A stretch of 64,000 bases of DNA from Cryphonectria parasitica EP155. Lineage: Eukaryota; Ascomycota; Sordariomycetes; Diaporthales; Cryphonectriaceae. A program made the translations under genes and the position numbers. Positions 25,533 through 60,284 of this stretch are shown piece after piece. The stretch lies in contig NW_024468910.1 in the NCBI RefSeq assembly GCF_011745365.1, positions 1,702,068-1,766,067 of the forward strand. The letters are read 5' to 3'. Under the pieces are notes generated by a model. The model was not told where the DNA came from, did not search any database, and saw only the letters and a program-made list of their open reading frames with translations. How positions within the stretch are numbered: position 1 is the first letter of the stretch; every line of letters begins with the position of its first letter.

Positions 25533-28255
25533 ATGGCGCCCCGCTTCCTCGCCCCCAAGGAGATCGGCCTTCTCATTCTCCTGACCATCTACTGCGAGGG
25601 CGCTGTGCCAGCTGACCAGCTCATCAACATCCTCACCTTCCTCGCTAGCCATAGCCACACCATCCCGATCAAAATCCCCTCTGCCCCACAACGCCGCTTC
25701 CAGAGGGCCCAGGAGGACATAGACCTGATCGAGTCCATCACCCCGTTCGAGACTCTCCTGCAGCCCATCCCTGCCGCCGTGGGCCTTCCCGGCCGGAGGT
25801 TGTGGGATCTCTTCCTCTCCCGCCTATGGGATCTCGACTCCCTCGATACCCTCCACCGCTTCTTCTACGGCCTGCCCGCCATCATCGCCACCAAGGAACA
25901 GATCCGCCGCATGATCGAGCACGATGACAACCATGAAGGCGCCGACCTCGACCACACCGTCCCTCTGCTGTCAAACTCCCCCCTGGGTCTATTCGCCCGC
26001 AGGGCTCATGTCGAGTTCCGCAGGCTCCCCTTCCTGAGCGCCTCCCGCCTATGGACGGACTTTGTCATATACCGCCAGCCGACCGCCGCCGCCTGGGCTC
26101 GTTGTGGTAGTCCCATACTGGGCCTACGACCGCTATCCTCCTTCGACGCCGCTCTCGAGGCCGGCGCCCCTCCCGATTGGGGCTCCTGGGTCCCCGATCT
26201 TGTGTATGGCGACGTCGGCAACACCCCGACGCCCGCGAGCGCCTGGAACATTGATGGCCTGATTGAGTTCCAGGTTGCCCAGATGCAACGTATAGTTTTG
26301 TCCCTCTGCTCTACTCTCCTGTCCTTGCGGGCTCTTGGCCTTGGGGGGGTTGGTCATCCTTCTTCCAACCTACCTTTGTGTGCTGCTAACTTTGGTTGAC
26401 TTGCGCTCTTCCTGATTTCAGGATACGGGGTCCGCGTGCCTCGGGAGCTGCAACAGCGCTTCTCTATTTTGCTCGAGACCAGTCGTGCCAACCCAAGACT
26501 GGCATATTATCTCAGGTGCGGCACTGGCCCTCCTTCTCCCCTTTTCTTCTCCGGTGGCAACAAAGACCAGCACTGACTCGTTTTTTTTTTTTTTTTTCCT
26601 TTTTGATCAGGTTCCTGGAAGCATGGAGGTCCGGCGACCAGTCTACCTCGTTCGAGTATCTGCACCGCTTCTTCGACTACACCATGCAGAACAGCGATCG
26701 CGAACACCACCAGTATGCCCTGCTGAACCTGGCAGTTCTGCAGGAAGATTTCGGCTGCCACGCAGACGCCATGTCCTCCATCCTCGAGACCATCGCCGCG
26801 GGCCGCCAAAAGCAAGACATCACCTGCCTCAACTTCGCCCTGAACTTCTACTACAACTTCAGCCTGCAGCACCCGCGTCTAGTCGAATCTGCCAGAGCCC
26901 GCACCATGTCTGCCGCCGGCCGAGAGACCCTCAGGTATCTTGGCTCCAAAGCCCAGGAAGCCGGCATGTGGCCTACCTGGTGTACCGCCCTGTTAGCCGA
27001 AGCCAAGGAAGGCCTCACCAGCGGTGGCAGCATCGCCCTCGCTCTGGAGAACATTGCGCGCAGCTCGCACATCATCGTGCGGCGCGGCCTGGTCAATATG
27101 TTTGGCACCCAGCTCTCCCTCTACGTCACTGTCTGGGACCGTGTGGGTGTTGGCATCCTCGCCAACATGCTCTGCGACATGTTCCTGCGCTGTCATGCCC
27201 AGAATGCCATCCTGGATGACACCCTGAAGATTACCTGCCGCCTCGCTGGCCTGTTGGTTGGAGCTGGTAGGTACGACGAGGGGCTGGAGCTCCTCGAGAA
27301 CATGGACCCCGACTGCCTGCACATCTGGAAATCCGAAAGGTACCGCCAGAAGCTGCGCGCCCTTGTTAAGCTGCGCAGGAACCTTCATCGCGGCGACCTC
27401 GACGCAGCCGACCTCCTCCTGCGCCAGGTCTTGCAGACGAGAAGCGACGACGAGCCCGACCTGCTTTTTGTTGCTGACTCCCTCCACTTCGATCTGCTCG
27501 TCCGCCGCGGCGATTTCCGCGCTGCCTTTGACACGGTTGACCGTCTCATCACTGAGGCACACGAGCGCAGCGGCCGCCTTGGCGCTGACGTCGTGCTGCG
27601 TGTCCGGCTGCTCCTGATGAAGGCCCACCTTTTTGAGCGCACCGGTCGCCCGCACCGAGGCTTCTCGATCGCCGTGCGTGCCGTCGCCCTGTCTTGGAAG
27701 GCCGGTCTGCCCGCCCTCCTCTGGCAGTCCGTCGCTGCACTGGCCGTCATCCTCAACGCCCTCGGCGATCACGACGGCGCTGCTGACCTGCTGTGCGCCG
27801 TCCTCCCGCGATGTTTAGAGTCCGACTTTAGTCACCTGGCTGCCAACATGTATTCGAGCCTTGCCGATGCGTACGTCGGTATCGCAGGACAGGTCGGGGC
27901 CAAGACGCCGGCGGTACAGGGCGGCAGGTCATATGAGGCGAATGACGAGGAGGACGAAGAGGAGGAGGACGAAGAGGAGGAGGACGAAGAGGAGGAGGAC
28001 GACGACGACGACTTGATCGTGGTGGATCAGGACGACACCGCAGAGAAGGCGAGGATGGAGTACCTAAACAAAGCTATGGACCCGCTGCGGCGCGCCTTTG
28101 AACTCTATGTAGCCGTAGAAGATCTACAGCAGAAGCTGGAGGTGACGGCCAAGATGGCCATGATCATGAGGGTCAGAGGCGAGATGACGGCGGCGGACGA
28201 CCTGGCCGCCAGGTATCTGGAGTTGAGGACGGGAGGCGATGACGGTATGAGGTAA
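25533..28255 (+). CDS. APC5: Anaphase-promoting complex subunit 5
   Basis: Exons 25533-26289, 26422-26515 and 26611-28255 join in phase to give 831 aa. Introns are GT-AG (GTATAG...TTTCAG and GTGCGG...GATCAG). APC5 is a TPR scaffold subunit of the APC/C ubiquitin ligase, which degrades cyclins and securin. N-terminal helices (PKEIGLLILLTIYCEG) are followed by the conserved Apc5 TPR signature YALLNLAVLQEDFGCHADAM and an alpha-helical repeat to the C-terminus. Residues about 730-752 form a Glu/Asp tract, probably a disordered loop. Length fits the family. It lies tail-to-tail with COX13, as is usual beside Sordariomycete MAT loci. Identification rests on the TPR signature plus synteny. Confidence 0.88.
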
Positions 28256-31548: not shown

Positions 31549-34049
31549 ATGGGGTTGCGTGTGACAACATGGAATGGTGTGTGCTAATCCCTGTACCCTT
31601 GCCTTGCCCTTTTTCTCGTTCTGATGGCTGACTATCCTCTCTCGTAGTGAACGGTATCAGGTATGTGATCATCAATCAGTCAACTGCAAAGAGGCGAGAC
31701 ATGGGGGGGGGGGGGAAACACAGCTAGGCTGTCCTGGAGTAGTGCCGAGTTGCGCTCACATTACGCACGTCATGGTCACAGGAATCCGTTCGGATACGCG
31801 CCGTGGAACCAGAAGAGGTCATTTCAGGCCATGTTTGACATCCTCGAGGCCGATATTGTCATCATGCAGGAGGCCAAAATCCAGCGCAAAGACTTGACCG
31901 ATGACATGGTGCTGGTGACGGGATGGGATGTGTTTTTCAGTCTGCCGCGGGACAAGAAGGGTACGTATATATCTCCCTGCTTTGTTGCTGCCAGCATTTT
32001 TTTTTTTCGCCTTTATTGTTGACCGTGATGTTGATCCCATCGCAGGTTACTCTGGGGTGGCCATCTATACCCGGAACGCAAAGTGCTGTCCCATCCGCGC
32101 CGAGGAGGGCATCACGGGCGTTTTGTGTCCGCCCAAGTCCACCACTAGGTTCCGAGATCTGCCCGAGGACCAGCAGATAGGAGGTTACCCCCGAGAGGAC
32201 CAGCTGCTTGGGATTGTCGATGAAGCCACCCTCGACTCCGAGGGCCGTACAGTCATCCTCGAGTTCCCCGCTTTCGTCCTCATTGGTGTCTACGTCCCCG
32301 CGACCCGAGATGATACGAGGACGGACTTCCGAATCGGCTTCCTCACCGCCCTCGACGCCAGGATCCGCAACCTCGCCGCCATGGGCAAGCAGGTCATCCT
32401 CGCCGGCGACCTTAATATTATACGGACCGACATCGACACCGCCGGCTGCGCTGACCAGCTGCGCAAAGAAGGCATGACCCTGGACGACTTTTTGTCGACA
32501 CCCTCGCGCCGCCTCTTCAACCAGCTCCTCTTTGAGGGTCAGGTCGTCGGCCAGAGGGACCAAGGGCGCGAGCAGCCAGTCCTGTGGGACATGACCCGGG
32601 CCTTCCACCCAGATCGCCAGGGTATGTTCACCTGCTGGGAGACCAAGAAGAACGCGCGACCTGGCAACTTTGGCAGCCGGATCGACTACATTCTCTGCAC
32701 CGCCGGCATGAAGGACTGGTTCGAGGACGCCAACATCCAGGAGGGCCTGTTGGGATCTGATCATTGCCCTGTCTTCGCTGTCATGGCCGATCGCGTGCGC
32801 CATGGGGCCGAGAACGACTCTCACATTGCCGACCTCGTGAATCCAGTAGGCATGTTCAAGGAGGGCCGGCGCCTGCGGGAGTGGACCACCAGGGACCTGC
32901 TGCCGCAGTCCGCCAAGCTGCTAGACGAGTTTGACCGCCGCCGCACTATCAAGGACATGTTCGCCAAGAGGCCTGCCGCCCCTTTCAAACCCATCCAGCA
33001 ACAGCCCGCAACGGAGCCTGGCGTCGAGTTCAGCATTGATTTTGGCAAGTCATTCTACATACAGGTCCCGTTTACAGCAACAGCCCCTGTACTTTCGTCG
33101 ACGCCCTCTGCAACTCCGCCCCCCCTGACCGACTTCTTCTTCTCCTCCTCCTCCTCCTCCTCCTCCTCCCCATCCCCCACCACCATGAGCCGCACGCCGT
33201 CCAATGCCACCCCCCTTCCCCGAATAACTCGTGCTCCGCCACCACCCCCTTCTAAGCGTGCCGCACCAAACATGACCAGCCAGTCAGTCAAGAAGCCCAA
33301 GACGACAGTGGTGACCAAGGATAGAGGCAAGGCCGCCCCCGGCCCTTCACAGAGCAGTTTGAGAGGCTTCTTCAAGCCCAAGACGCCAGCACTGGACACC
33401 ATCGACGAGGAGACATTGGACGGGGAGGCAAGCGGGGAGGGGAAAGGGGAAGAAGAAGAGGGAGGAAGCCCGGCGCGAGCGAAGGCACCAGCAGCACCGT
33501 CACAGGCAGCTTCTTCTCCAGTCAAGAAGACATCTATCTCAACGTCGCAGCTGGACGGCATCGGTCGTAGCCCTGGCCCTGGCGGCCTGCCTCACGATGC
33601 GCTGGCTGACGGAAAGCAGGAGATGGCCGCGGCGATGGCGACAGCACCAGATGAAGACAAGGTCTTTGATCCTATCGAGTCCAAAGAGTCATGGTCTAAG
33701 TTATTGGGCAAAAAGCGGCCAGCGCCGTTGTGTGAGCACGGCGAACCCTGCATCAGCTACGTGACCAAGAAGCCTGGCGTTAATACTGGTCAGTTCCCCT
33801 TCCCCCGCCCCCCCCCCCCCAAAAGAAAAGAAATGCCCACCAAGACAAGATAGCATCTTGACATTTGCTCGTCGTCACGCCCAACTCCAGCTACATGGAT
33901 CCCGAGCTAACCCACCTCCTCCCCCTCCAGGCCGCTCCTTTTACATGTGCTCACGACCGCTGGGACCCTCGGGACAAAAGGAGAAGGGATCATCATCACA
34001 GTGGCGGTGTGGGACATTTATCTGGCAGTCGGACTGGAAAGGATCATGA
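31549..34049 (+). CDS. APN2: AP endonuclease 2 / DNA lyase (Apn2)
   Basis: Exons 31549-31576, 31648-31660 (13 nt), 31782-31960, 32046-33788 and 33931-34049 give 693 aa in phase. It is a nuclear abasic-site endonuclease and 3' phosphodiesterase of the exonuclease III family. Visible motifs: TTWNVNGIR (residues about 7-14), MQEAK with Glu44, GDLNI with Asp195 and Asn197, and the catalytic SDHCPV with Asp312-His313. A disordered Ser/Pro linker follows, then a PCNA-binding PIP-type box QSSLRGFF (509-516) and a C-terminal zf-GRF domain (about 633-690: LCEHGEPC, SFYMCSRP, WRCGTFIW). All catalytic residues expected are present. It is the classical left flank of MAT in Sordariomycetes. Confidence 0.95.
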
Positions 34050-35101
34050 TGGGAGACAAGTCTACCGTTATAGTCATAGTTATTAGCGTGACCCCCAAAG
34101 AAAAAAAACCATTGTTGGTTTACAATAACCTTTTTCTTTGATTGCTGTCTAGGTGCTACCTAATTTCTTTGGGGGCCAGACCGATAAGAACATCTTCCAG
34201 GAAACCTCACACCCTCACCGGTGGAGGAACCCTGTGCCCTTTTTTCCTCGGGATTCCCCTCCGTGTCCACCACCCAAGTTGCCATTTGTCATCATCATAA
34301 GTATGGTTTTGTTTTGTTTGCTCGTTCGGTGCCGACGAGAGAACCAAGTCTTCCAGGAACAGCACACACACACACCCCTCACCGACGGTGATCCTGTGCC
34401 CCTCACAATTGCCTCAGCCCCACCATCATTACCATTTGCCACCCAGTGTCAAACCTGTCCATTAACCATACCAGCCATTTTGGCCATAGCACCCCCCCAA
34501 ACCCGTTCCGCCGAATCCATCCCTTGGTCCCATGAGGGACTTGCCGCCAGTACGATGACGGCAGAGACGCAGGAATCCGAACCAATTTTCCCCCCCCCCC
34601 GGGGAAAGGTGCCACCTGTCCCCCTCCCCCCCCCCCCCCCCATACTCGAAAAAGAAAAAAGAAAGGCCAATGTAGCTCGGTTCAGAAGTCCCAGGCTGCG
34701 TGTAGCTCCTCCACATTACTCGTCCTTTTGGCGAGACTTGGGCCCCCAGCCCGGGCCCAAGTGCAAGGCTGCCTCCCGTACCTGGTCGGCACATGCCGTG
34801 ATGTAGGAAAATAGAAAGGGAAAAAAAGGAAAGGAAAAGATAACGTGACAGAGTCGGCGGAGAGGTCGCCATTTGTCGTGCTTGCTGTCAAACCGTAACC
34901 GTGTTGCGGATTTGGGGGGAAGTCGGTGTGGTGTCGAATAGCGGGATGCAAGAATATTCCGATGCCGTAGGGTTGTTTGGGACTTTGAATTCAGTGATGC
35001 GTTGCTCCAATCTCCTGAAATGACTATTGAGTGATGAAAGCAAACATGACTTCTGGAGATTTGGTCGATAACAGGACAGCCTGCGTCGAAGGCTGGCAGG
35101 C
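34050..35101. other. APN2-MAT intergenic region with imperfect duplication
   Basis: Segments about 34190-34290 and 34341-34445 share the order CTTCCAGGAA, a CACCC-rich run, CCCTCACCG, CCTGTGCCC and CCATTTG. This suggests an old tandem duplication of about 150 bp. Poly(C) runs occur at about 34591-34600 and 34623-34640. No gene is supported. One idiomorph boundary may lie in this stretch. Confidence 0.4.
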
Positions 35102-36166
35102 TTACTCCTCGTCATCGTCCTCGGTGTAGTCTGACTGACTGGTGGTCGACAGTGTGTCATTCGACTGCGCGTTGGTAGACTTGTCGACATTCTTTTTGGC
35201 ACGGCGTTTAACCTCAGACGACTTGCGAGGATGGTACTTGTAGTCGGGGTGGGCTATCATGAAAGCAGCCTTGATGTCGGCAGCCTTCTTTCGGTAGGCG
35301 TCACGGACTTCCTCGCTCTCGCTCTGCCACTGACGTCCGATCTTCTTGGCTAATAATTGTTAGTTTTGAACTTACTCCCGATGGATTGGGGAAGATAATG
35401 GGCTGGAGTCACTTACAGATCTCGATGTTGGATGCGTCAGGGTGGGCCTCAGAGACAGTCCGGTGGTGAGCAGCACGGTAGATAATAAAGGGGTTAGGGG
35501 GACGAGGAATGTGATCTGTGGTGTTCTCGGTCGAAGCAGGAGTGGAAGCTTCAGTCGAAGCATCACCGGTGGTCAGGTGCTGCTGCTGGGGTGGCAGAGG
35601 AGGCATGGCTCCTCCATTGTTGAGGAAGAAGGCGATTCCTGCCCAGGTCTGGGTTCCATTGAGCTGGAATGTAGGAATCACACTGCCCTGTGCAGCTCGA
35701 AGAGCGTAAGCTCCAGTGAAGGGGTCGAACTGTTGGAAACCGCGCAGAGGACCGATGAAAAGTCTGTTCGGAGCGATGCCGTCTCCGACAATAAGAGTGT
35801 CCTCGCCAATGACCTCGCTGCAGCAGCCAAAGTCAGTTGAAGCTCTTGAGAATTGGAGATATAGGTAGAAACGACTTACTCCATAATCGCGGTGAAAGTA
35901 AATTTCTGGTGAATGTCGAGAGCCTCGAACTCAGGAGCATCGAAGGCTACAGTCTTGGACAGGTTGAAAGCATGGAACTGCAATCCAATGGTATCGATGA
36001 AGTCAAGAAAGAGCTGACCATTGCCCTCGCTGTGGGCAATCGCGCCGTTCATGGCAACCTGATCCACAGCAGTCGACAGAGTGGGAGACATGTGAAAACA
36101 TGGCTCGCGACCGCCAGCCACGGCAGCCTGACTCTCGTTGAGGAGGAAAGTGCAGAGGTCAGCCAT
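35102..36166 (-). CDS. MAT1-2-1: Mating-type HMG-box protein MAT1-2-1
   Basis: Exons 36166-35880, 35817-35417 and 35349-35102 (introns 62 and 67 nt, both GTAAGT donors) give 311 aa. It is a DNA-binding transcription factor that sets mating identity and activates pheromone and receptor genes. The HMG box spans about residues 199-270: IPRPPNPFIIYR, NIEISKKIGRQW, EEVRDAYRKKA, HPDYKYHPRK. The second intron interrupts the Ser230 codon inside the box, the position conserved in MAT1-2-1 genes. A Lys/Arg patch (VKRRAKKN) follows the box and could serve nuclear import, and the tail is acidic (YTEDDDEE). Changes from the common consensus include Pro in PPNPF and Ile in SKKIG. It lies head-to-head with the gene at 36929. 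Confidence 0.95.
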
Positions 36167-36928: not shown

Positions 36929-37644
36929 ATGTCTGGTCAACCACTACGCGTCATGGAGTTCAAGAAAGATATGAACTGCCCTGCTGTCTGCCCTGAGACT
37001 CATGGCGAGAATGGAGAGTTTCTCCGCCCTCCCACACCTTCCACAGAGCCCGCTGTTATCAAAATGGTGATCATACGTCTTATTCCCATCGATGAAGTTG
37101 GTGCACCAGATGCCAACCCAGAGAATCTGCCTGACGTTACCGATCTGTACCCATATTTTGGACCCAACTTCCGCGTTCTTCTGGAGAGCGAGAGCGATTT
37201 TATCATGCCTAACGAGAACGGCACTGACCAAATGGCCCAGACCCAGATTATGGGTAAGTCGCACATCACTACACAGCTTGGAGGCCAGTTCCAAGTCATA
37301 TTGCTAACTGCATTTGCCAGACAACGGCCACAGCGACAACATTCGGAACATCGCGGATCTCAACCTCATGTTGGAGGACTTCAAAATGACTGAGGGGCTC
37401 GGTCATATGGCTGAGAGCGATGGCAATGCTGGCAAGTCACCCATAATTCTAACTTTTCAGGCTATTTTCAAGTTGAGTTACTGACTGGAGTTTTCCAGGC
37501 GACACCGGCGGCCACAATACTCAAGACATCAGTAACCTGAACCTGCAGCTGACTGACTTCAACATGGCTGAGGAGGCCGAGGCCCGCTTCCACAGTTCTG
37601 ATGCTCTCGATGACGACAACTTCAATGCCTCCCTCCTCCAGTAG
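36929..37644 (+). CDS. Second MAT1-2 idiomorph gene, unnamed, with duplicated exon
   Basis: Exons 36929-37253, 37321-37431 and 37499-37644 give 193 aa. Intron 1 is GTAAGT...GCCAG with CTAAC branch site; intron 2 is GC-AG (GCAAGT...TTCCAG). Both are 67 nt and in phase 1. The first part (MSGQPLRVMEFKKDMNCP) has no domain I know. Exon 2 (GHSDNIRNIADLNLMLEDF, KMTE) and exon 3 (GHNTQDISNLNLQLTDF, NMAE) are homologous to each other. There is no membrane segment or signal peptide. Many Sordariomycetes carry lineage-specific second genes in MAT1-2 (MAT1-2-2, -2-3 and later numbers); I cannot assign a number. Position inside MAT and divergent transcription with MAT1-2-1 support a mating-related role, which is inference. 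Confidence 0.75.
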
Positions 37645-40229
37645 CGCACGGGTGTCACACCACTGACTCGGAAGAGAATTGGGTTTGCACTAGACATCAA
37701 GGGAATGGGAAATGGGCTCTTGATCCTGCATGGGGTACTGCTGTGGACGGTGGAACTACTGAGACTCGCACTACATAGGCAGCAAGAACGACAAAAAGGA
37801 GCACTCATGGCTGGGGTGATGCTACTATGGCGATGATTACCCTGGAGGAGATTTTCATAGCATCCATAGTACTCTGTCTACTGCCAAAAATTCAGACACT
37901 GTTAAGGTTTCAACTAGAAGGTGTCTCTAGTTTCGGTGATCCACCTTCACTTTGGCTGTGTCGAATAACAAACCGGCGACAGGAAAAAGAGAAGGCGCCG
38001 GTGGAGGGCAACCGATGCGTCACTAAAAGGACTGCTTCAGCGGCTCCATTTGAGGGAGACCTGCCCTTTCCCTGCACCTCGCCCGCCTTGACATTAGGGG
38101 GGCTACTTTCTTGTTGTGGTAAAATTGAGTTCTTTGTCTTTTTTTTGTTCTTTTTGTTCTTTGGTCTTTGGGGACTAGGAAAAAGGTGGAAAGCGGGACG
38201 AATGTGTAAAGCCTTCTTCCCACGCCCTTCCTTAGTAGGAGAACATGTCACGATGATTGAAGAGTTGAGGTCAAAATGCGGCTGAAAATGGGCCTGCAGG
38301 GTCCACCTCCAGGGGCTCCGCAAGCAGAAGCTTACAGGCTGGGGACTTAGCCACTGCCCCCGTCCCAAGTGGAACGACCCCAGCGCCGCCAGACTACCTG
38401 AACCCGTCCGCTTCGGTTGAAGCCAAAAGCTAGAAGAAGCTCAGTAGCGGGCATCCCATCGTCTTCAAGCTAAAAAGGTTAAATCTGTTGTTTCTCTATG
38501 CCATCTCTCAGGCCTAAATGTGGTGTTTTCTCCGACAAAGGGCCCCATCTCGTTAAGCTACCAACTACGGGGGCGATTTACCCCAGAATCCCCGTTGATC
38601 CCAAGCCAAACCAGACGGACCGACCAGACTAGACCAGAACCACGGGCTCTAGACGAGGGGGGGGGGGGGGGGAAGACAAACCTTCAACGGACACAGACAC
38701 AAAGACAGGGCATAGAGGAACAGAGAAGAGAGACAAGAGAAAGAGAGATTTGGGGTGGTGGATGGTGTGGACAAGCCTGGGATGGACTTTCAAGAAAAGA
38801 AAACCCCTCCCCGCTACTAAGCAATGTTCACCCGCAAGCAGCCAAGTCATCTTCTCCCTTTGAAAGCCTTGTCGTCGCCATGGCACCCCAAACTTTACCC
38901 TGTATCGACTGCCAAGATGCTCACAAGGTCAGCAAATCGTGAACTGACAGGTCAGCCACGTCTCACGATTGCCGAGAGCCTGTAAGGAAGACGACCTAAC
39001 CCTGTGGATAGCGATGTTGAGACGGGCTCTCTCGCCTCACATCCCCTACTTTTCTTCCTTTTCTTACTTGCATCGCATACTACAGGCCCCCAACGCATGC
39101 AAACAAGGTCACAGAGCCCACACCAAGGCTTTCTCTGTCTCCCATCGAGGATTGACAAGAGAGAGAGGGGAGAGAGAGCGCGGCGGCACGAGGAGGGCTG
39201 GGGCCGGAGAAAGACCCCCATGACTACCCCTCCTCCTCCAAGGAAAGCGCTGCAAGCACCCCTGCCCACACACACCCTGTCGTCGACCAAAAGCCGGACG
39301 GACTATCGAGCGCTCGAGGCCGAAAACTCCGGTCGTTGCTCAGATGTACATAGACTGGAGGTCAAAGATACGTGCTCAGATGTACATAGACTGGAGGTCA
39401 AAGATACATGCTCAGATGTACATACACTGGAGGTCAAAGATACATGGCACCTATTGAAGGTACATTTGCGTAAGGGAGGGGGGGGGGGGGGATAACAAAT
39501 CCAAGACAGCATAAACGAGAAAAAATTTTGCTCAGGCAGACATGCATCGGGCCATTGGACGTGTAACCCCCCCCCCCCCTCCTCCTCTCCTCCGGCTCGA
39601 AAACATGGGTTTTTTTTGTGACGTCGACGACAAAACGTGCATGTAGTCTCGTATTCTTGCAGGGAGAGAGAGTAGCGAGGGGGTGTGTTTGTAATGGAGG
39701 GGGGAGGGGGGGGGGGTAGCAGGTACGGTGGTACCTCTGGTACATTGGGATACAAGAAAGCTTCCAGACCGCGGAGAAAGAGAGGTTGGGTAGAGAAAAA
39801 GAAAAGAAAGAGTAAGCTGAAACTCGTCACATTTTCACATGGCACAGCATTCGGCCTGAAGACGGGAAAATTTTGTTGTCACATTCCGTCCAGGTTTTTC
39901 GCAAGTGCTGAAAATTAGGGCGAGGTCGAGATTGCTCCAGATGCAGCCAGCAAGCCACACACGAAAACAAGACTGGACTGTGAGTGGCCTGATTGATGAT
40001 GATCATCCCAGACCCCCCCCTTCTTCTTCCTCCTCCTCTCCACTTCCCGCCCATCCCAAGCTGCCGCCCTTCCTTCCCCCCCCCCCCCCCTCTCCCGTCG
40101 TTTCATTTTCCCGCGTGTAGAAAAGGACCATGCATTGCATTAGCTTTTGTGGCGAATGTCCTTTTCTAGTGTGGTTGCATGCATTTTTTGTCTTCCAAAC
40201 GGACCACGACAAAAGAAAGAATAAACAAG

Positions 40230-40640: not shown

Positions 40641-41688
40641 CTTGAGACATCCTTGATCTTCCTGCTGATGATCCCTTTGCTCCCAAGGGCACATGCATGA
40701 TGATGGCTGATCAGGCTGCGAAACCTCCTCCCTGGCCCGGAACCACAATATCCCAGCTCCCCCTAGAGGGTGGTTGGAGCAGTGAGACATAATAAAACAG
40801 ACCAACGACGCCACGCACTATACATCACCGCCCTCCCTTCCATCGGAATGGTCTTCTTTTTCTTTCTTTTGAATGTGTGGTGCTAGGCCAAAGGGGAAGG
40901 TCTCACCGAGCTGGCTGTCTTTCTGGGGGAACACAAGAGTGTGCTCACCTCTTCGGGGCAATTCGCATGGAAAAAGGGGAGGAGGGGGGGGGGGGGGAGA
41001 GAAGAGACAATACAAGGTATGCATCATCTGAGGCAGGGAGAACGAGGGCGGGCGCCTAAGTGCATGGCTGGGCTGCGAAAAAAAGCATCATCGCTCCTGC
41101 CATTTTGCCCCCTTCCAACATCTCGCTTGCTCGGTGACCCACTCTGGTCGCCTTGCCTTTCAACTCAGCGTCTAATCCGATGCGACGTAACTTGGGACGC
41201 CTCCTGGTGGGAAAGAGGGACACCCCGCAGTCGGCGTCACGCATAACGCACGTACACGCGATGCAACAACAACCACAAGCAATCACCTCCAGGCAAGGCG
41301 GGCGCCTTCTCACAACGAGAAACACGAGCTCCGGGTCATCGTCTGGTCCAGAGACCAGTCGCGTTTGTCCTCTTCCTCGTCCTCTTTCCTCTTCTTCTCG
41401 TTCTAGCCAGTCCCCCCTCCCTCTGGCTCCTCTTTTGTTGGGGGAAAAGACAGACCACTCACTCTACCGTCGATCAAGAGCAGCAACAATAAGTGGTAAC
41501 GCCGACGGCAGTGGTGACACCAACCAAGACAAGCAAGACAACAACAACGCTGACAACATTCACCACAACGGAATACAAGACAACGTTGACAACAAGACTG
41601 TCAACCACTCTTTTCACCAACACCACAACAACAACAACAACAACAACATCGTCCTCTTCTTCACCTTAACCCACATCCTGTATTAGCA
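37645..41688. other. MAT-SLA2 spacer, low-complexity, no supported gene
   Basis: Four kilobases with poly(G) or poly(C) runs of about 9-14 at 38659-38672, 39478-39490, 39570-39580, 39705-39717, 40079-40090, 40484-40496 and 40985-40998. (CT)n repeats lie at 40232-40261 and 40601-40638. Frames are short and overlap on both strands. A tiny frame at 38880 (MAPQTLPCIDCQDAHK then a GTCAGC donor) is too short to support. Confidence 0.5.
39338..39445 (+). repeat. Three tandem copies of a 36-bp unit
   Basis: Units 39338-39373, 39374-39409 and 39410-39445 each begin GCTCAGATGTACATA and contain CTGGAGGTCAAAGATAC. The copies differ at one or two positions. As the unit is 12 codons long the repeat keeps frame, but no gene is supported around it. 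Confidence 0.85.
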
Positions 41689-41834
41689 ATGGCCGGCCCC
41701 TCCAACACCACCAATACCACCACCACCATCACCAACTCTGCCACTGTCTATGCCATGCCCGCCTCTACTCTTGTCATTGGATTTACCTCCTCCAGCGTTT
41801 GCTACGATACAGATCCTCCAGGGTCATCTCCAGA

Positions 41835-41873
<39 letters not shown>

Positions 41874-42039
41874 GCAGCCAGGCGTCACCAACCTGCGGTG
41901 GTTCCTCCAGCACCGACATCATCCCCCCAACAACAGTGGCAGCAACAACAACAACAACAACGACGACGACAGCAACAACAACAACAACAACCCCCCCCCT
42001 AACACAACTCCATTCCCCACCAGTCCCGCAGCAAACAAT

Positions 42040-42091
<52 letters not shown>

Positions 42092-42167
42092 GCGACGACA
42101 ACAACAACAACAACAACAACGCCCCTCAGCACCCTAACACAACTCCATTCCCCACCAGTCCCCCAGC

Positions 42168-42216
<49 letters not shown>

Positions 42217-42507
42217 GGCGACTCATCTGGTCCTGCGCCGGACGTGCCACCTCACCCGGAGCAATTGTTTGGATCGTCTTTCCAGCAAGGTTCTTCCTCC
42301 CGGGTTCATGGGGGCGTGGATGCCATGCAGCAGACAGACGACGCCTTCTCCCCCGCCTCCCCCGCCTCCCCCCATGGTTGTGAACCCACGCCTCCCTCTT
42401 CCGGTCATGCCAGTCCTTCCCTCTCAGATACTGGCTCCCCAGCTGGACCTGAAGCCGAACCTTCTGGCGGCCAAGATAATGAGGGACCTGACGGTGTGAG
42501 CCCTTGA
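41689..42507 (+). CDS. Low-complexity Gln/Asn/Ser-rich open frame, 272 aa
   Basis: The frame starts at ATGGCC (context AGCAATGG) and runs to TGA at 42505-42507. It contains poly-Gln (about residue 47-58), poly-Asn, poly-Ser (two runs of about 14-15) and a Pro-rich acidic tail. A module NTTPFPTSP followed by Ala and a Ser run occurs twice, each preceded by an Asn run. Other frames through the same DNA are also open because of the CAG/AAC repeats, so the correct frame and even coding status are uncertain. If real it would be a disordered, prion-like nuclear or RNA-binding protein. Confidence 0.35.
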
Positions 42508-43776: not shown

Positions 43777-46700
43777 TTATTCCTCTTGGTAGGATATCTT
43801 GCGCATCTCGCCCAGGCGATGTCGTGCTGCCCCAAGGGCGTTCTCCAGCTGCAATATCTCGACCTGCTGTTCCATCTCGCGCACCTTGAACTCGTGCGCG
43901 CCGAGCTTGCCATAGTCGACCTGCTCCTCCTCGCCGCCCAGGCGGTCCTTGATCATGGCCTGCACCTGGCGGACCAGCGACCGGCAGGCGGCCCCGACGG
44001 CCTTGGAGGCCTGCTCAAGGGCCTCCTGGTTCTTGCTCATGAAGCCGGCCTTGACGCGCGAGGCGGCGACGAGCTGGGCAGTAGAGGCGGCCACGTCGTT
44101 GGAGGCCACGATGAGCTGCTCGGGGCTGTTGCGGCCCGAGAGCACACCGTCGGCCGTCTCGATGAGCGTGTTGGTCGAAGTGGCGACGGCCTTGGCGGCC
44201 GAGAGGAGACCCTCGGTCCAGCGGTTGTTCTTCTTGTAGAAGGCGGTGCGCGATGATGAGCCGCGGCCGGCCTGGACAATCTCCTCCTGGGTGGCACTGG
44301 CGGCCTTGATGAGACGCGCGATGGCGTCGGTGATGGCCAGTGCGGCGTCGAGAATGGAGTCATGAACCTTGAGCTCGTAGGTCGAGTAGCCGTCGCGCGG
44401 CTTGTTCTTGAGCTTGGCGAGGCGCGCCGCCGCCGCCGCGATGGCATCGGCGGCCTTGCTCAGCTCCGACTCGACCAGAGCGCCGAGGTCGCCCTTGTCG
44501 GCGAGCTTGCCGAACCCGGGGGCGAAGGACTCGACGAGCCTGTTGAGCTTCTGGAGGTTGAGCTGGACGTCGTTCATGCTGTTGACGACCACGTCCGTCT
44601 TCTGCATGGGGTCCATGCCCTCGAGGCGGAAGCTCTGGAGGCCGCGGAAGAACTTGACGGTGGCCTGGGCGGACTGGCGGGCGCCGCCGATGAGGGCGTC
44701 GCCCTTCTTGTCGTCGGTGGCGAGGCGGGTGAGGCCCTTTGTGTTGTTGCAGACGTCGGCGATGGAGCTCGCGTAGACGTTGACAGCCTTGATGAGGTCG
44801 GCATAGGCGGCACTGGGCCCGTCGGCGATGAAGTTGTTGAAGGCGGTGGCGAACTCGACGGCGCTGGCCGAGGCCTTCTCGATCTGCGAGAGCACGTACG
44901 AGGGCGAGGCATTCTGGTTGCCGGCCTGCATGGTGGAGTCGAGTTCATACATGGCATCGTCGACGCGGGCGACGCCGCTCTGGAGCACCGAGTCGATAAT
45001 CTCGTTGATCTTGTCGAGGTTGGCCGCGACGAGCGCGTCGAGCTGGCCGTCGAGAGCCGTGTCGGCATCGCCCTGGCCCGCCCTGAGCTCGTTGAGCTCG
45101 ACGAGGGCCTGGTCCATGCCGGCCTTGTACACCTCGAGCTCCTCCTCCTTGTCGCGCAGGAGCTGCTCAAGGTCGGCGCCGCCGCTGCGGATCCTATCCT
45201 GCGCCTCGTCGAGGGCGCGGGTCTTGTCGCGGAGGGCCTGCTCGAGGTCGGCCATCTCGCGGTTGTAGCGGGCGAGCATGGTGGAGAGCTCGGTGCCCTT
45301 GGTGCGCTCGGCCTTGTCGGCGCGGTCGAGGGCCATGCGCAGCTCGCGGCGCAGCTTCTCGACCTCGTCCTTGTTGGCGCCGCCCAGGCGATCCTTCTCG
45401 TGGAGGGCGCGGTCGCGCTCGCGGATCATGTCGGCGAGCTCGAGGTTTTTGGTCTTGATCTCGCGCTCGAGCTTCTCGCGGCGGTCGACGGCCTCCTGCG
45501 CCGAGGCGGCCTTGAGCTGCGCCGACTTGAACTTTTGGAGGAGGTCGAGGTGCTCGTGGCGGAGCTGGGAGTAGAGCTTGGCGAGGGCCTCGTACTTTGT
45601 GCGCCAGGTGTTGACCTGCTCCTGGAGGGCGCGGACCTGGTCGTCCTTGCTGCCCATCTGCTGGCCGTAGCTGGCCTGGAGCTGCTGCAGCTCGCCCTCG
45701 AGGCTCCTGACACGCTGGTCGTACTGCTGCAGCATGAGCTGGTCGCGCTCGTACTGAGCGCGGGCGTTGAGGTTCTCCTGCTCGAGCTCGGCGAGGCGGC
45801 CCTGGGTGAGGGACTGGGCCTGCTGGGCGCGGAGGGCCTCGGCCTGCAGGCGCTGCTGCTCGGCGAGGCGGCGCTGCTGGTCTTCAAAGTCGCGCTGGGC
45901 CTGGAGGGCGGCCTGCTGCTGGGCCTGCTGCTGGGCGAGCTGCTGGGCCTCGAGGACACGCTGCTGCTCCTCGTACTCGCGGTTCTGGCGGTCCAGCTCG
46001 CCCTTCCAGAACTCGGAGATCTCATCGGGCTCCTCAGCCTTCGGGGGCTGCTGGGGCGGGGTCGGGGCGCGCTCGATCTCCTGCTTGGGTCGGTCGGGCA
46101 GGCGGGGGGCGGCGCCCTCTTCGGCGAGCAGGTTGGGGGGGTCCTGGGGCAGCTTGGGGATGGTGACAAGGCTGGTGAGGTAGCGGAGGTTGGAGCACTC
46201 GTAGTAGAACTTGACGAGGCGGTAGTGCTGGGCGTCGTACCGGGCGCGGAGGGGCTCAAGGGCCTCTACGTCGCCCGTCATGGAGTGCATGGCGCGCAGC
46301 ATGCTGGTAATGAACTTGTAGATGCCGTAGCTCTCTGCGACGAGGGGCACGAGGGCCGAGATACGGCACTCGTTGTTGCCGACGTTGCGGAAGTGGGAGA
46401 AGATGAGCTTCTGAAACTGGTCGATCTTGTCCTGGAGGGTCATGAGGTCGGTGATGGTCTCGTAGCCCTCGTTGGGGTCGTTGATGGCCTTCAGGCTGAG
46501 GTATTCCTCGTATTCGAAGGTGCCGTTGAACTCGGGGTGCTGCTGGTGGAACGAGAGCTTGGCGAGGAGGAAGTAGACGTACTCGCGGATGAGGGGCCCG
46601 TATCCGCGCATGCCCTCGCCACCCATGCCGCGGTTGAGGCTCTCTATCCATCCGCGACTGGCGAGGGCCTCTCGGATGACGTGGGGGTGGCCCTCCTGGA

Positions 46701-47097
46701 GAACCTTGTGGATAGTGATGAGGGCTTTAAACGTCTGGACCTCGTCGGCGAGGATCGGCTGCCTGTTTGGAGGGGGGGCGGGCGGAAAGGAGGAGAATGA
46801 CGGTTAGCGACGGACGGTGCGAAAGGAGGAGGAGCAGGAGCAGGACGGTCATACACTTTCAGGCCGGCCCAGAAGGACTGGCCCGACTTGTGATCCCATG
46901 TGTAGACGATGCAGCTGCGCACATGTTTTCGCTTTGGGGCTGTTTCGTCTGGGCTGGTTGCCTTCTTGATATTGATGGCGAGCTCCGTGTCGGACCTGCG
47001 ATGACGACCACCGGGTCAGCATGTCCGAGAAGCAAAAGAAGGTAGATGCGCGCCAGCAGACGCACTTTGTATGGTCGAGGCTGCGGATGGTGGCCAT
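43777..47097 (-). CDS. SLA2: Endocytic adaptor Sla2/End4 (Hip1R family)
   Basis: Exons 47097-47066, 46995-46855 and 46762-43777 give 1052 aa, a typical Sla2 length. It links clathrin-coated pits and PtdIns(4,5)P2 membranes to cortical actin. The N-terminal ANTH domain (about 1-275) shows RSLDHTKSDTELAINIKKAT, YTWDHKSGQSFWAGLK and REYVYFLLAKLSFH. A long Gln/Glu/Ala coiled coil follows (about 300-620; EAQQLAQQQAQQQAAL). The C-terminal THATCH/I-LWEQ actin-binding domain includes LSAAKAVATSTNTLIETAD, and the protein ends RLGEMRKISYQEE. Introns: GTGCGT...CGCAG (70 nt) and GTATGA...AACAG (92 nt). It is the classical right flank of MAT. Large antisense frames over it are GC-bias shadows. Confidence 0.95.
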
Positions 47098-49599: not shown

Positions 49600-51240
49600 C
49601 TATCTGGACTTTCCAGAACTGTGTTTCTTGCGATGGGAGCCCGATGTTGGACTGTGCGAGTCTCTCTGGCGCTTAGAAGAGGCCTTATGGCGACTGTGGC
49701 GTTCCGATATCGACGTTGATGTAGAGCTTGGATTCGCTGGTCCGGCAGCAGCGGGCGCAGGTGATACGCTGTACCCCTGGTAATCTTGCGTTGCAGGAGA
49801 TCGTGATCTTTCGACGGCTGATGGTGTGTGGTCAGCCTCGCAGTCGAAATTCTCGTCCGAGACGGAATTGGAGTTATCGCAGGGCTGTGCCTCAGCTATC
49901 GGCTCTTCCTGAGCAGCTGCGACCCGCGCTCGGTATGTAGCGTTGGCCGCCTCGATGAATGTAGCTCGCTGCTGCATCGCTAGGTCCCTCAGATTCCTGT
50001 ATGCAGTAGCTCCTCGAACAAAGGTCTCCCGGTTATCCGTTAAGGCATAAGCAGTGAGCTGGTTCATGTGATACTCGGGCTGGCCTTCTGATGTTGCAGG
50101 CGCAGTAGTATGATGAGCATACAGCTTGAGCTGGCCATCATGGTAGGTTGAGCTGTAGGTATAGGGATTGCTATCATACACAGGCTTCTCCCGACCATAG
50201 TTCTGCAGGCTATGCATAGCCCGAGTACCGATTGCTCCATCATACTGAGCCTGTCGCATCATCACTGCTGTTGATCCATGCGGGCCCTTCGCTTCTAAGA
50301 AGAAATTGGGTGCAATTATCCGATCTGTTGAGGTAGAGGGGATAATATGATGTGAAAGCTCGCTGCGAACAGCTGGGTCAAGCTGGGTAGGGCAGGCGCC
50401 CAGAGCAATATCTGGTTTTGCGTCTGTTATAGTTCCGTCCGTAAGCGGCTCTAGATTTCCGAAAGCCATATTTTCGGTAGATGGATGGTTATCTTCCCAG
50501 GGGCCAGTAATAGTTGGCAGCACATATTTGCATATATCGCTTTCATCTTTTGCCTGAGCATTGGTTTTGCGGAAGATCTTGAATCTGTCATCGGAGAATC
50601 GGGAGAGCGATAGAGATGGTCGTGGTTTTGCAAGTATAGTAGAGAAAGTGTTCTCATCTATCTCTTGCGAGTCCCAATATGTATGAATGCCATGATCGGT
50701 CAAATGTTGTTCGAATCCACGATTATAAGTTGATGTCTTTCCAGTCTTTGTTGTCCCCCCCGGCTTTGTTGTAACCGGAGTAGGATCAGTAGACTTGGTT
50801 GCTTGGCTTCTAGATAAGGAGCTCATAGTAGCAGCAGTATGGTGCTTGCTCAGCACAGGAGCAGGATACCCTCGAAGATCGCGCAGGTCTGGTCCGCCGT
50901 GGCGTGCAAATCGGGCGAGGTCTTGGGCAGCGGGCTCTGTCGGCGACGACGGGGGAGGAGGGGCAGGTTGTTGTTCGCAAATCCGCCGGTCAAGCTCTTC
51001 CAGGGCCGAGCGGATCAGCGGAATCGTCGAGAGTCTGTCCCAGAACTCGGGTGGATAGTGCCAGGAGGGCGTGTCGACGGAGGGTGAGGGCGAGGGCGAG
51101 TCGGAACTCTGGTATCGAGATATCTGGGCTGAGTTCTTTTCTAGCAGGGACTGCTTGATCTTCCGGGGGGACTTCGCACAGCGACTGTGTTGCAAGTCAT
51201 CGTTTGCTCGTTGTCTCTTGCGAACTTGGGGGACCGCCAT
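49600..51240 (-). CDS. PD-(D/E)XK nuclease-like protein (DUF7924 type), copy A
   Basis: An uninterrupted frame. I choose ATG at 51240 (MAVPQVRKRQR, 546 aa) over 51273 because it aligns with the start of copy C. Region 1-170 is basic, Ser/Pro-rich and variable. The conserved core about 170-450 has KPDIALG with Asp277 and NFFLEAKGP with Glu316 and Lys318. This spacing fits the D...ExK active site of PD-(D/E)XK nucleases. It is followed by RQAQYDGAIGTRAMHSLQNY, YSSTYHDGQLKLYAHHTTAP and ETFVRGATAYRNLRDLA. The Ser-rich tail ends KKHSSGKSR. Relation to DUF7924 is from memory. Role unknown; nuclease function is inferred from the motif only. Confidence 0.7.
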   Translation of the reverse strand: MAVPQVRKRQRANDDLQHSRCAKSPRKIKQSLLEKNSAQISRYQSSDSPSPSPSVDTPSWHYPPEFWDRLSTIPLIRSALEELDRRICEQQPAPPPPSSPTEPAAQDLARFARHGGPDLRDLRGYPAPVLSKHHTAATMSSLSRSQATKSTDPTPVTTKPGGTTKTGKTSTYNRGFEQHLTDHGIHTYWDSQEIDENTFSTILAKPRPSLSLSRFSDDRFKIFRKTNAQAKDESDICKYVLPTITGPWEDNHPSTENMAFGNLEPLTDGTITDAKPDIALGACPTQLDPAVRSELSHHIIPSTSTDRIIAPNFFLEAKGPHGSTAVMMRQAQYDGAIGTRAMHSLQNYGREKPVYDSNPYTYSSTYHDGQLKLYAHHTTAPATSEGQPEYHMNQLTAYALTDNRETFVRGATAYRNLRDLAMQQRATFIEAANATYRARVAAAQEEPIAEAQPCDNSNSVSDENFDCEADHTPSAVERSRSPATQDYQGYSVSPAPAAAGPANPSSTSTSISERHSRHKASSKRQRDSHSPTSGSHRKKHSSGKSR

Positions 51241-51435
51241 AAAGGGCATCTTGCAGGAGACAAAAGCGAGCACGGAACTTGAGGATAATAAGGGGGCATT
51301 GGTTGCAAAAGAGCTGGAGTCTCATCGCTGGATCTTTGTTGGCCATTCGACTGGATGCGAAATGCGCGTAGAGAAAAAATTTTATTGGACAGCTTGCGTT
51401 TCAACAAGATTAGGCAGTAGTTTTCTGATTAGCTA
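51241..51435. other. Upstream region of nuclease-like copy A
   Basis: Short; no promoter element could be placed with confidence. Confidence 0.3.
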
Positions 51436-58652: not shown

Positions 58653-60284
58653 CTATCTGGACTTTCCAGAACTGTGTTTCTTGCGATGGGAGCCCGACGT
58701 CGGACTGTGCGAGTCTCTGTAGCGCTTAGAAGGGGCTTTCTGGCGGCTGTGGCTGCTGTGGCTTTTCCCCGATGTCAAGCTCGACGTAAAGCTTGTATCA
58801 ATGCTCGCCGCTGGTTTAGCAGCAGCAGCAAATGTGGAACCAGATGTCCGACTGTGCCCCAGTTGGCGATCTTGCCCGTCGGGGTGTAGTGCTCTGTCGA
58901 CGGCCTGGGGTGTATAATAAGCCTCGCAGTCCACGTAGCTGTCCGAGCTGGCGTTGTTCTCGGAGCATGCCTCGCCCGTGGGGATTTCCTGCGCTGCTGC
59001 AGTTTCCGCTTGGTATCTAGCGTTCGCATCCTGGATGAAAGTATCTCGACGCTGCTTCGCTAGATCTCTCGCATTTCTGTATGCAGTAGCTCCTTGAATA
59101 AAGGTTTCCTGTGAATCCGTCATATCGAACCCCCTGATCTTGTTTATGTGGTACTCGGGCTGGCCTCCTGATGTTGCGGGCGCAGTAGCATGATGAGCGA
59201 ATAGCTGGAGTGTGCCATCATGGTAGGTTGTACTATAGGTATAGGGATTGCCATCATACACAGGCTCCTCCCGACCATAGTTCTGCAGGCTATGCATAGC
59301 CCGAGTACCGATTGCTCCATCATAGCGAGCCTGTCGCATCATCACTGCTGCAGATCCGTCCGGGCTCTTCGCCTCCAGAAAGAAGTTGGGCGCTATCAAT
59401 CGATCCGTCGAAGTGGAAGGGATAATGTGGTGTTGGAGCTCGCTGCGAATAGTTGGATTGAGTTGTTCAGGGAGAGCTCCTAGAGCAATGTCCGGCTTGG
59501 CTGCTACTATAGTTCCATCAGTGAGCGGTGCCAGATTTCCGAAAGCCATATTCGCAGTGGAGGGATAATTATCTTTCCGAGGGCCAGTAATGGTGGGAAG
59601 AACGTATTTGCACACATCATCTTCATCCTTTGCCTGAGCATTAGTCTCATAGAAAGTCTCGAAAGCATTGTCTGAGAAGCAAGAGGGCGAGAGTGATGGC
59701 CTTGGAGCCATGAGTGCCACTTTTACTTCCTCCAAGTTTAGCTTTTGCGACTTCCAGATGGTATGAATGCCATGGTCGGTCAAATGCTGATCGAACCCAG
59801 GATTGTAAGGGGATGACTTTCTACTCTTGGTTGTCCCTGACTTGGTTATAACCGTTGTTGGATCGGTAGATTTGATTGCTTGGCTTCGGGACGAGGAGCT
59901 CATGGCGCTGGCGGTTTGGTAGTTCCTTACTACAGGAGCGGAATACCCTCGAAGATCACACAGATCTGGCCCGCCGTGGCGTGCAAATCGAGCGAGGTTC
60001 TGAGCGGACTCTGTTGGCGGCGGCGGAGGCGAAAAGGCAGGTCGTGCACGATTCCGTCGGTCGAGTTCTTCCAGGGCCGAGCGGATAAGCGGAATTGTCG
60101 AGAGTCTGTCCCAAAACTCAGGTGGGTAGCGCCAGGGACTGGAGTGGTTGAGGGCCGGCGGATCGATACTCTCCGCTGAGGAGTTGTCGGGTGCTGTCTG
60201 GTCTCGACGTGGTATCTTCTGGGACTTCGCACAACGACCGTCTTGCAAGTCCTCGTGTGCTCGTTGTCTCTTCCGGTTCGCCAT
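58653..60284 (-). CDS. PD-(D/E)XK nuclease-like protein (DUF7924 type), copy C
   Basis: Uninterrupted 543-aa frame from ATG at 60284 (MANRKRQRAHEDL). Same architecture as copy A: basic Ser/Pro-rich N-terminal 160 residues, HLTDHGIHT, PSLSPSCFSDNAFETFYE, KPDIALG with Asp265, NFFLEAKSP with Glu304 and Lys306, RQARYDGAIGTRAMHSLQNY, HHATAPATSGGQPEYH and a Ser-rich tail ending KKHSSGKSR, identical to copy A. The motif triad is conserved in both long copies although their N-termini differ a lot, which points to selection on the core. Substrate and biological role unknown. Confidence 0.7.
   Translation of the reverse strand: MANRKRQRAHEDLQDGRCAKSQKIPRRDQTAPDNSSAESIDPPALNHSSPWRYPPEFWDRLSTIPLIRSALEELDRRNRARPAFSPPPPPTESAQNLARFARHGGPDLCDLRGYSAPVVRNYQTASAMSSSSRSQAIKSTDPTTVITKSGTTKSRKSSPYNPGFDQHLTDHGIHTIWKSQKLNLEEVKVALMAPRPSLSPSCFSDNAFETFYETNAQAKDEDDVCKYVLPTITGPRKDNYPSTANMAFGNLAPLTDGTIVAAKPDIALGALPEQLNPTIRSELQHHIIPSTSTDRLIAPNFFLEAKSPDGSAAVMMRQARYDGAIGTRAMHSLQNYGREEPVYDGNPYTYSTTYHDGTLQLFAHHATAPATSGGQPEYHINKIRGFDMTDSQETFIQGATAYRNARDLAKQRRDTFIQDANARYQAETAAAQEIPTGEACSENNASSDSYVDCEAYYTPQAVDRALHPDGQDRQLGHSRTSGSTFAAAAKPAASIDTSFTSSLTSGKSHSSHSRQKAPSKRYRDSHSPTSGSHRKKHSSGKSR

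What the first reader, a model, noticed from the sequence alone, without database searches (positions are those of the whole stretch)
36929..37644. Second MAT1-2 gene grew by tandem duplication of an exon plus its intron
Exon 2 and exon 3 encode the same motif (D..GH....I..LNL.L.DF.M.E). Both are preceded by 67-nt phase-1 introns whose donors are alike (GTAAGTCGCAC versus GCAAGTCACCC). This implies duplication of an intron-exon unit, after which one donor changed GT to GC, leaving a rare GC-AG intron. The protein has no domain I recognise and sits head-to-head with MAT1-2-1, so it is a candidate undescribed mating-type gene.
Basis: partly seen in the sequence, partly recalled or inferred. Interest (0 to 1): 0.75.

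Follow-up and report, generated by a model that had tools for sequence, protein, structure and literature searches.

The report
Duplicated exon-intron in mating-locus gene
Beside the master mating-type gene of the chestnut blight fungus sits a small, apparently spliced gene with no relative found, built partly by doubling an intron together with its exon; it may be a mating gene missing from current descriptions, but that has not been shown.

Summary
The window is Cryphonectria parasitica EP155, scaffold 2. The gene at 36929-37644 is annotated there as hypothetical protein M406DRAFT_71430, divergent from MAT1-2-1 (M406DRAFT_44005); no second copy was found in the genome. Exons 2 and 3 share a motif (12 of 21 residues; 0 of 5000 shuffles score as high). 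The two 67-nt introns also match end to end (65% identity; 2 of 3000 shuffles that keep the splice signals reach it; the best of 68 other intron-like pieces scores 42 against 60). So an intron plus exon sequence was duplicated, period about 180 nt. No homologue or domain was found, and the papers seen give this idiomorph only MAT1-2-1. It is a good candidate secondary mating-type gene; idiomorph specificity, expression and function are untested. Domainless secondary MAT genes are a known kind, so this is a new member with an unusual origin.

The parts
36929..37253 (+). Exon 1 of the second gene (108 codons plus one base)
   Evidence: Open frame; identical to the database protein P0001 over residues 1-108; predicted frame scores best of six
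37254..37320 (+). Intron 1, GT-AG, 67 nt, phase 1; copy 1 of the duplicated intron
   Evidence: Sequence and phase; matches intron 2 end to end. No RNA reads held
37321..37431 (+). Exon 2; holds motif copy 1 (GHSDNIRNIADLNLMLEDFKMTE)
   Evidence: Motif match to exon 3: 0 of 5000 shuffles as high
37432..37498 (+). Intron 2, GC-AG, 67 nt, phase 1; copy 2 of the duplicated intron
   Evidence: GC donor -6.9 against -10.2 for the database GT donor under Fusarium splice-site frequencies (frequencies from PMC5677156); homology with intron 1 starts at this donor. No RNA reads held
37499..37644 (+). Exon 3 with stop; holds motif copy 2 (GHNTQDISNLNLQLTDFNMAE)
37192..37577 (+). Stretch covered by the tandem unit, period about 180 nt (37192-37398 aligns to 37374-37577)
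   Evidence: Strict banded alignment, 212 columns, 62% identity
37402..37431 (+).
   Evidence: P0001 lacks these ten residues; donor scores
36167..36928 (.). 762-bp divergent region between the start codons of MAT1-2-1 and the second gene
   Evidence: Gene models
35102..36166 (-). MAT1-2-1, HMG box, 311 aa; exons 36166-35880, 35817-35417, 35349-35102
   Evidence: This splicing reproduces P0002 = M406DRAFT_44005 exactly; HMG_box E 3e-19
31919..33853 (+). Flank: open frame of an APN2-like gene
   Evidence: Exo_endo_phos E 6.7e-13; the name APN2 rests on position and recall
43777..46803 (-). Flank: SLA2-like gene, main open frame
   Evidence: ANTH and I_LWEQ domains

Best explanation
36929-37644 is a real spliced gene of 193 codons beside MAT1-2-1. 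Shown by sequence: its 3' half holds a tandem duplication of about 180 nt that carried an intron and the exon sequence around it, so the protein gained a second copy of an acidic-hydrophobic motif (LNL.L.DF.M.E) and the gene a second, homologous phase-1 intron; equal phase let the unit be added without breaking the frame. Inferred: the second intron is spliced from a GC donor that mutated from GT. Inferred with less confidence: it is a secondary MAT1-2 gene, transcribed divergently from MAT1-2-1, whose acidic product (pI 4.1) acts as a small co-regulator in the sexual cycle, the doubled motif serving as a two-site docking segment. Component confidences: duplication 0.93; coding gene 0.85; GC donor used 0.8; MAT1-2-specific 0.55; co-regulator role 0.3.
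For: Exon motif beyond 5000 shuffles. Introns score 60 against 23.5 +/- 6.3 (0 of 3000) and 2 of 3000 with splice signals fixed; 68 other intron-like pieces of the same genome reach at most 42 against either intron; the two MAT1-2-1 introns reach 28-41. Collinear match through intron and exon. Open frame, phases and best frame of six in each exon. An independent gene model exists. Position 762 bp from MAT1-2-1 and between it and SLA2. No domain, no homologue found, as PMC6562746 describes for secondary MAT genes. dN/dS between copies 0.27.
Against: No RNA, no MAT1-1 sequence and no relative with the gene was available. Exon copies are hardly less diverged than intron copies (0.35 against 0.44 per site), and the dN/dS bootstrap range is 0-0.91 on 21 codons chosen by protein alignment, so constraint is only hinted at. 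The database model uses another donor. Papers seen give the idiomorph one gene, which may mean that its authors saw no second gene inside it. 2 of 2337 pairs of other intron-like pieces also score 60 or more (best 128; not looked into).
Confidence: 0.6

Rival explanations
1. The gene is real and internally duplicated, but it lies in flanking sequence common to both mating types, or is an orphan gene merely linked to MAT, with no role in mating.
For: PMC5386874 states, citing McGuire et al. 2001, that the C. parasitica MAT1-2 idiomorph has only MAT1-2-1, and PMC10998396 and PMC6562746 agree. Idiomorph limits were not seen here.
Against: It lies only 762 bp from the MAT1-2-1 start, on the SLA2 side. 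No annotated relative was found in a database that does return MAT1-2-1 of other Diaporthales, although a fast-evolving orphan would look the same.
Confidence: 0.4
2. The database model is right: intron 2 is 97 nt with a GT donor at 37402, the protein has 183 residues, and GCAAGT at 37432 is not used.
For: The public protein P0001 is built so, and both donors keep the frame. GC donors are about 1% in Fusarium introns (PMC5677156).
Against: GTCATA scores -10.2 against -6.9 for GCAAGT, even with the 1% prior; the homologous intron 1 starts at the position aligned with GCAAGT and both are then 67 nt. Gene finders often allow GT only (recalled).
Confidence: 0.18
3. No duplication: the exon and intron likeness is convergence or chance, helped by shared splice signals and composition.
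For: Fixing the splice signals raises the shuffled mean to 43.5 of 60; 2 of 2337 pairs of other intron-like pieces score 60 or more; Tandem Repeats Finder is silent; under looser gap costs the gene is not exceptional (5 of 24 other pieces score higher).
Against: Only 2 of 3000 shuffles with signals fixed, equal length and phase, and a collinear match that goes on from intron into exon; the exon match alone exceeds 5000 shuffles.
Confidence: 0.05

Closest known systems
Secondary MAT1-2 genes, e.g. MAT1-2-7 of Huntiella omanensis (PMC9602353, abstract and passages)
   Same: Small gene near MAT1-2-1, no known domain, no homologue found at first in databases
   Different: MAT1-2-7 is intronless, present only in MAT1-2 and shown to be needed for the sexual cycle; here there are two introns, one copied, and neither specificity nor function is shown
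Unknown genes in the Chrysoporthe MAT1 loci (five in C. syzygiicola, seven in C. zambiensis; PMC10298223, section 3.2)
   Same: Same family, Cryphonectriaceae; domainless genes without database matches among the MAT genes
   Different: Sequences not seen, so homology could not be tested; those loci are homothallic with MAT1-1 and MAT1-2 genes together
[quoted passage not shown]
   Same: A tandem duplication across an intron-exon border leaves the gene with one more intron
   Different: There the new donor came from formerly exonic sequence; here a complete intron with its own donor appears to be copied, the donor later differing GT/GC
MAT1-1-2 and MAT1-1-3 homologues found in MAT1-2 idiomorphs of Diaporthe and Valsa (PMC5386874)
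   Same: Extra genes beside MAT1-2-1 in Diaporthales
   Different: No MAT1-1-2 or HMG profile matches this protein (Pfam, E up to 10)

Membership tests
Secondary MAT1-2 gene | Lies in the MAT1 locus, beside MAT1-2-1 and between the APN2 and SLA2 flanks | tested here: met
   Gene order
Secondary MAT1-2 gene | Present in MAT1-2 strains and absent from MAT1-1 strains | not testable with these tools
   No MAT1-1 sequence of this species was available
Secondary MAT1-2 gene | Expressed, and affects sexual development | not testable with these tools
   No RNA or crosses
MAT1-1-2 | Match to the MAT1-1-2 profile PF17043 | tested here: not met
   No Pfam family at E up to 10
MAT1-1-3 / MAT1-2-1 (HMG) and MAT1-1-1 (alpha box) | HMG or alpha box; likeness to MAT1-2-1 | tested here: not met
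   No Pfam match; BLASTP with MAT1-2-1 E 0.71
Tandem intron-exon duplication | Both the exon and the intron copies are homologous and collinear | tested here: met
Tandem intron-exon duplication | A relative with a single copy of the unit | not testable with these tools
   No relative found
GC-AG spliceosomal intron | Strong consensus around the GC donor, branch site and AG acceptor | tested here: met
   G|GCAAGT, CTGAC, CAG; donor score above the only other in-frame donor listed
GC-AG spliceosomal intron | Observed splicing at this site | not testable with these tools
   No RNA reads held

The most novel reading that the evidence does not exclude
A second, so far unnamed MAT1-2 gene of Cryphonectria, perhaps of the wider Cryphonectriaceae, whose protein was extended by copying an intron-exon unit, doubling an LxLxL/DF acidic docking motif that tunes the activity of MAT1-2-1. 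It would show a mating-type protein growing by exon-intron duplication.
Probability: 0.3. Interest if true: 0.65.

Novelty: new member of a known kind. Interest (0 to 1): 0.45.

Why it matters
Secondary mating-type genes are seldom conserved beyond genus or family (PMC6562746), and how they arise is mostly unclear. Here one route can be read from the sequence: an intron copied with its exon, in frame because both introns are phase 1. If the gene is MAT1-2-specific, the one-gene description of this idiomorph in a well-studied tree pathogen would need correction. The database protein is probably also short of ten residues.

Tried and rejected
Paralogy with MAT1-2-1: rejected, best BLASTP E 0.71. 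Origin from another gene of the genome: protein and DNA searches of G000 found only this locus. Known domain, MAT1-1-2, HMG or alpha box: none. Solved structures: no match at E up to 10. Structure prediction of P0001: mean pLDDT 36.9, so no fold search was run. Genome searches for PF04769 and PF17043 gave nothing, but the tool says nothing rang in its controls either, so they show nothing; PF00505 did find MAT1-2-1 among 11 matches. Rfam and tRNA scans of the window: none. A third copy of the motif in exon 1 (DFIMPNE): suggestive in DNA (exon tails 11 of 3000 shuffles; short pieces R1/R2 191 and R1/R3 91 of 5000), not in protein (643 of 5000), so left open. A banded scan with looser gap costs was not selective (5 of 24 other pieces scored higher than the gene) and is not used. 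A first pool of intron-like pieces was too small (8, two of them these introns). The last part aligned a stretch with itself and was discarded. Literature: 10 searches, two of which listed nothing, and 9 papers opened, none read whole; no second MAT1-2 gene of C. parasitica was seen. McGuire et al. 2001 and Kanzi et al. 2019 were known only through citations.

Full report
What it is. The window is G000:C2:1702068-1766067 of a 43.8-Mb genome. Contig 2 has 5,527,719 bases, the contig length also listed for two Cryphonectria parasitica EP155 proteins: M406DRAFT_71430 (P0001, the gene of the finding) and M406DRAFT_44005 (P0002, MAT1-2-1). The order is an APN2-like gene (PF03372), MAT1-2-1 on the minus strand, the second gene on the plus strand, then SLA2 (ANTH and I_LWEQ) on the minus strand. 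The second gene starts 762 bp from the MAT1-2-1 start codon, head to head.

Gene structure. Exons 36929-37253, 37321-37431 and 37499-37644 give 193 codons and a stop; both introns are 67 nt and phase 1. Skipping exon 2 would keep the frame; retaining either intron breaks it. With a codon model from the SLA2 and APN2 frames of the window, the predicted frame is the best of six in each exon, though exon 1 is only level with background. The database protein lacks ten residues at the end of exon 2 because it uses a GT donor at 37402. With splice-site frequencies for Fusarium from passages of PMC5677156 (+2 T 99%, C 1%; +5 G 93%), the GC donor scores -6.9 and the database donor -10.2. The GC donor is the better reading, but it has not been seen in RNA.

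The duplication. The score is 54 against 24.8 +/- 5.1 in 5000 shuffles, none as high; the best internal repeat of the whole protein is also above all of 1000 shuffles. The stronger evidence is in the introns. Aligned end to end they score 60 (65% identity over 68 columns) against 23.5 +/- 6.3 for dinucleotide shuffles (0 of 3000). With the first 8 and last 22 bases held fixed, so that splice signals cannot explain the match, 2 of 3000 shuffles reach it. Of 69 intron-like pieces in the window and 200 kb of the same genome, one is intron 1 itself; the other 68 reach at most 42 against intron 1 or intron 2. Among 2337 pairs of such pieces, 2 reach 60 or more (best 128; not looked into). The two MAT1-2-1 introns score 28-41 against these introns and 38 against each other.

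Extent. A strict banded alignment joins 37192-37398 to 37374-37577 (212 columns, 62%), so the period is about 180 nt and the likeness may begin in the tail of exon 1. That part is weak: 11 of 3000 shuffles in DNA, 643 of 5000 in protein. If real, DF.M.E occurs three times, as expected if recombination between two short DF.M.E repeats copied the stretch between them; this is inference. The copies differ by 0.44 substitutions per site in the intron and 0.35 in the exon, so the event is not recent. dN/dS over the 21 codons is 0.27 with a bootstrap range of 0-0.91, at most a hint of constraint, since the codons were chosen by protein alignment. Against the reading: looser settings were not selective (5 of 24 other pieces scored higher), 3 of 76 other pieces of the window reach or exceed the gene's two-part score, and Tandem Repeats Finder does not list the unit.

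Relatives. Two searches of 5.8 billion proteins returned only the EP155 entry (1 hit among 31 candidates, and 1 among 3). The same database gives 21 MAT1-2-1 hits at E 1e-10 or better, the EP155 protein included, with Juglanconis, Discula, Cytospora and Diaporthe among the named ones. The search needs shared five-residue words, so distant homologues may be missed, and genomes without predicted proteins are not covered. No Pfam family and no solved structure matched at E up to 10. Only this locus was found in its own genome.

Is it a mating-type gene? PMC5386874 (two of three parts seen) states that the C. parasitica MAT1-2 idiomorph carries only MAT1-2-1, citing McGuire et al. 2001. PMC10998396 (passages) and a table in PMC6562746 (passages) agree. 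Ten searches of the library (listed under Tried and rejected) and nine papers opened showed no second gene named for this species; McGuire et al. 2001 and Kanzi et al. 2019 on Chrysoporthe were seen only as citations. Two Chrysoporthe species have five and seven unknown genes in the MAT1 locus (PMC10298223, section 3.2), and Immersiporthe has a homothallic locus whose figure was not available (PMC8867778, passages); whether any of these genes is this one is open. No MAT1-1 sequence was available, so idiomorph specificity is the key untested point.

How it may work. The protein is acidic (pI 4.1; 35 D+E, 10 K+R), and a single-sequence prediction gave no confident fold (mean pLDDT 36.9). Both motif copies contain LxLxL (residues 122-126 and 159-163). 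I recall LxLxL as a docking motif for TOPLESS/Tup1-type corepressors and acidic-hydrophobic stretches as activation segments; both are leads from memory, not tests. My preferred mechanism is a small co-regulator, expressed with MAT1-2-1 from the shared divergent region, that uses the doubled motif to bind a partner. The nearest functional precedent seen is MAT1-2-7 of Huntiella omanensis, a domainless secondary MAT gene whose truncation goes with changed expression of about a quarter of the genes (PMC9602353, abstract and passages).

Verdict. The mating-type label and the GC splice are plausible but unproven. I rate it a new member of a known kind with an unusual, readable origin.

Noticed in passing
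37402-37431: The public EP155 protein M406DRAFT_71430 (183 aa) lacks ten residues because its model takes a weak GT donor instead of the GC donor; probably an annotation error.
   Followed up: yes
39337-39446: A 36-nt tandem repeat, 3.1 copies at 97% identity, in the long stretch between the second gene and SLA2.
   Followed up: no
41590-42507: A 305-codon open frame rich in Q, N and S runs from trinucleotide repeats, no Pfam match.
   Followed up: partly
49600-51321 and 58653-60341, minus strand: Two long open frames (573 and 562 codons) that by eye encode closely similar proteins, likely a local duplication beyond SLA2.
   Followed up: no
26390-28255: A 621-codon open frame on the APN2 side; by position perhaps APC5, which is recalled and not tested.
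   Followed up: no
34592-34641, 38657-38672, 40076-40090: Many long runs of C or G in the intergenic DNA around the locus.
   Followed up: no
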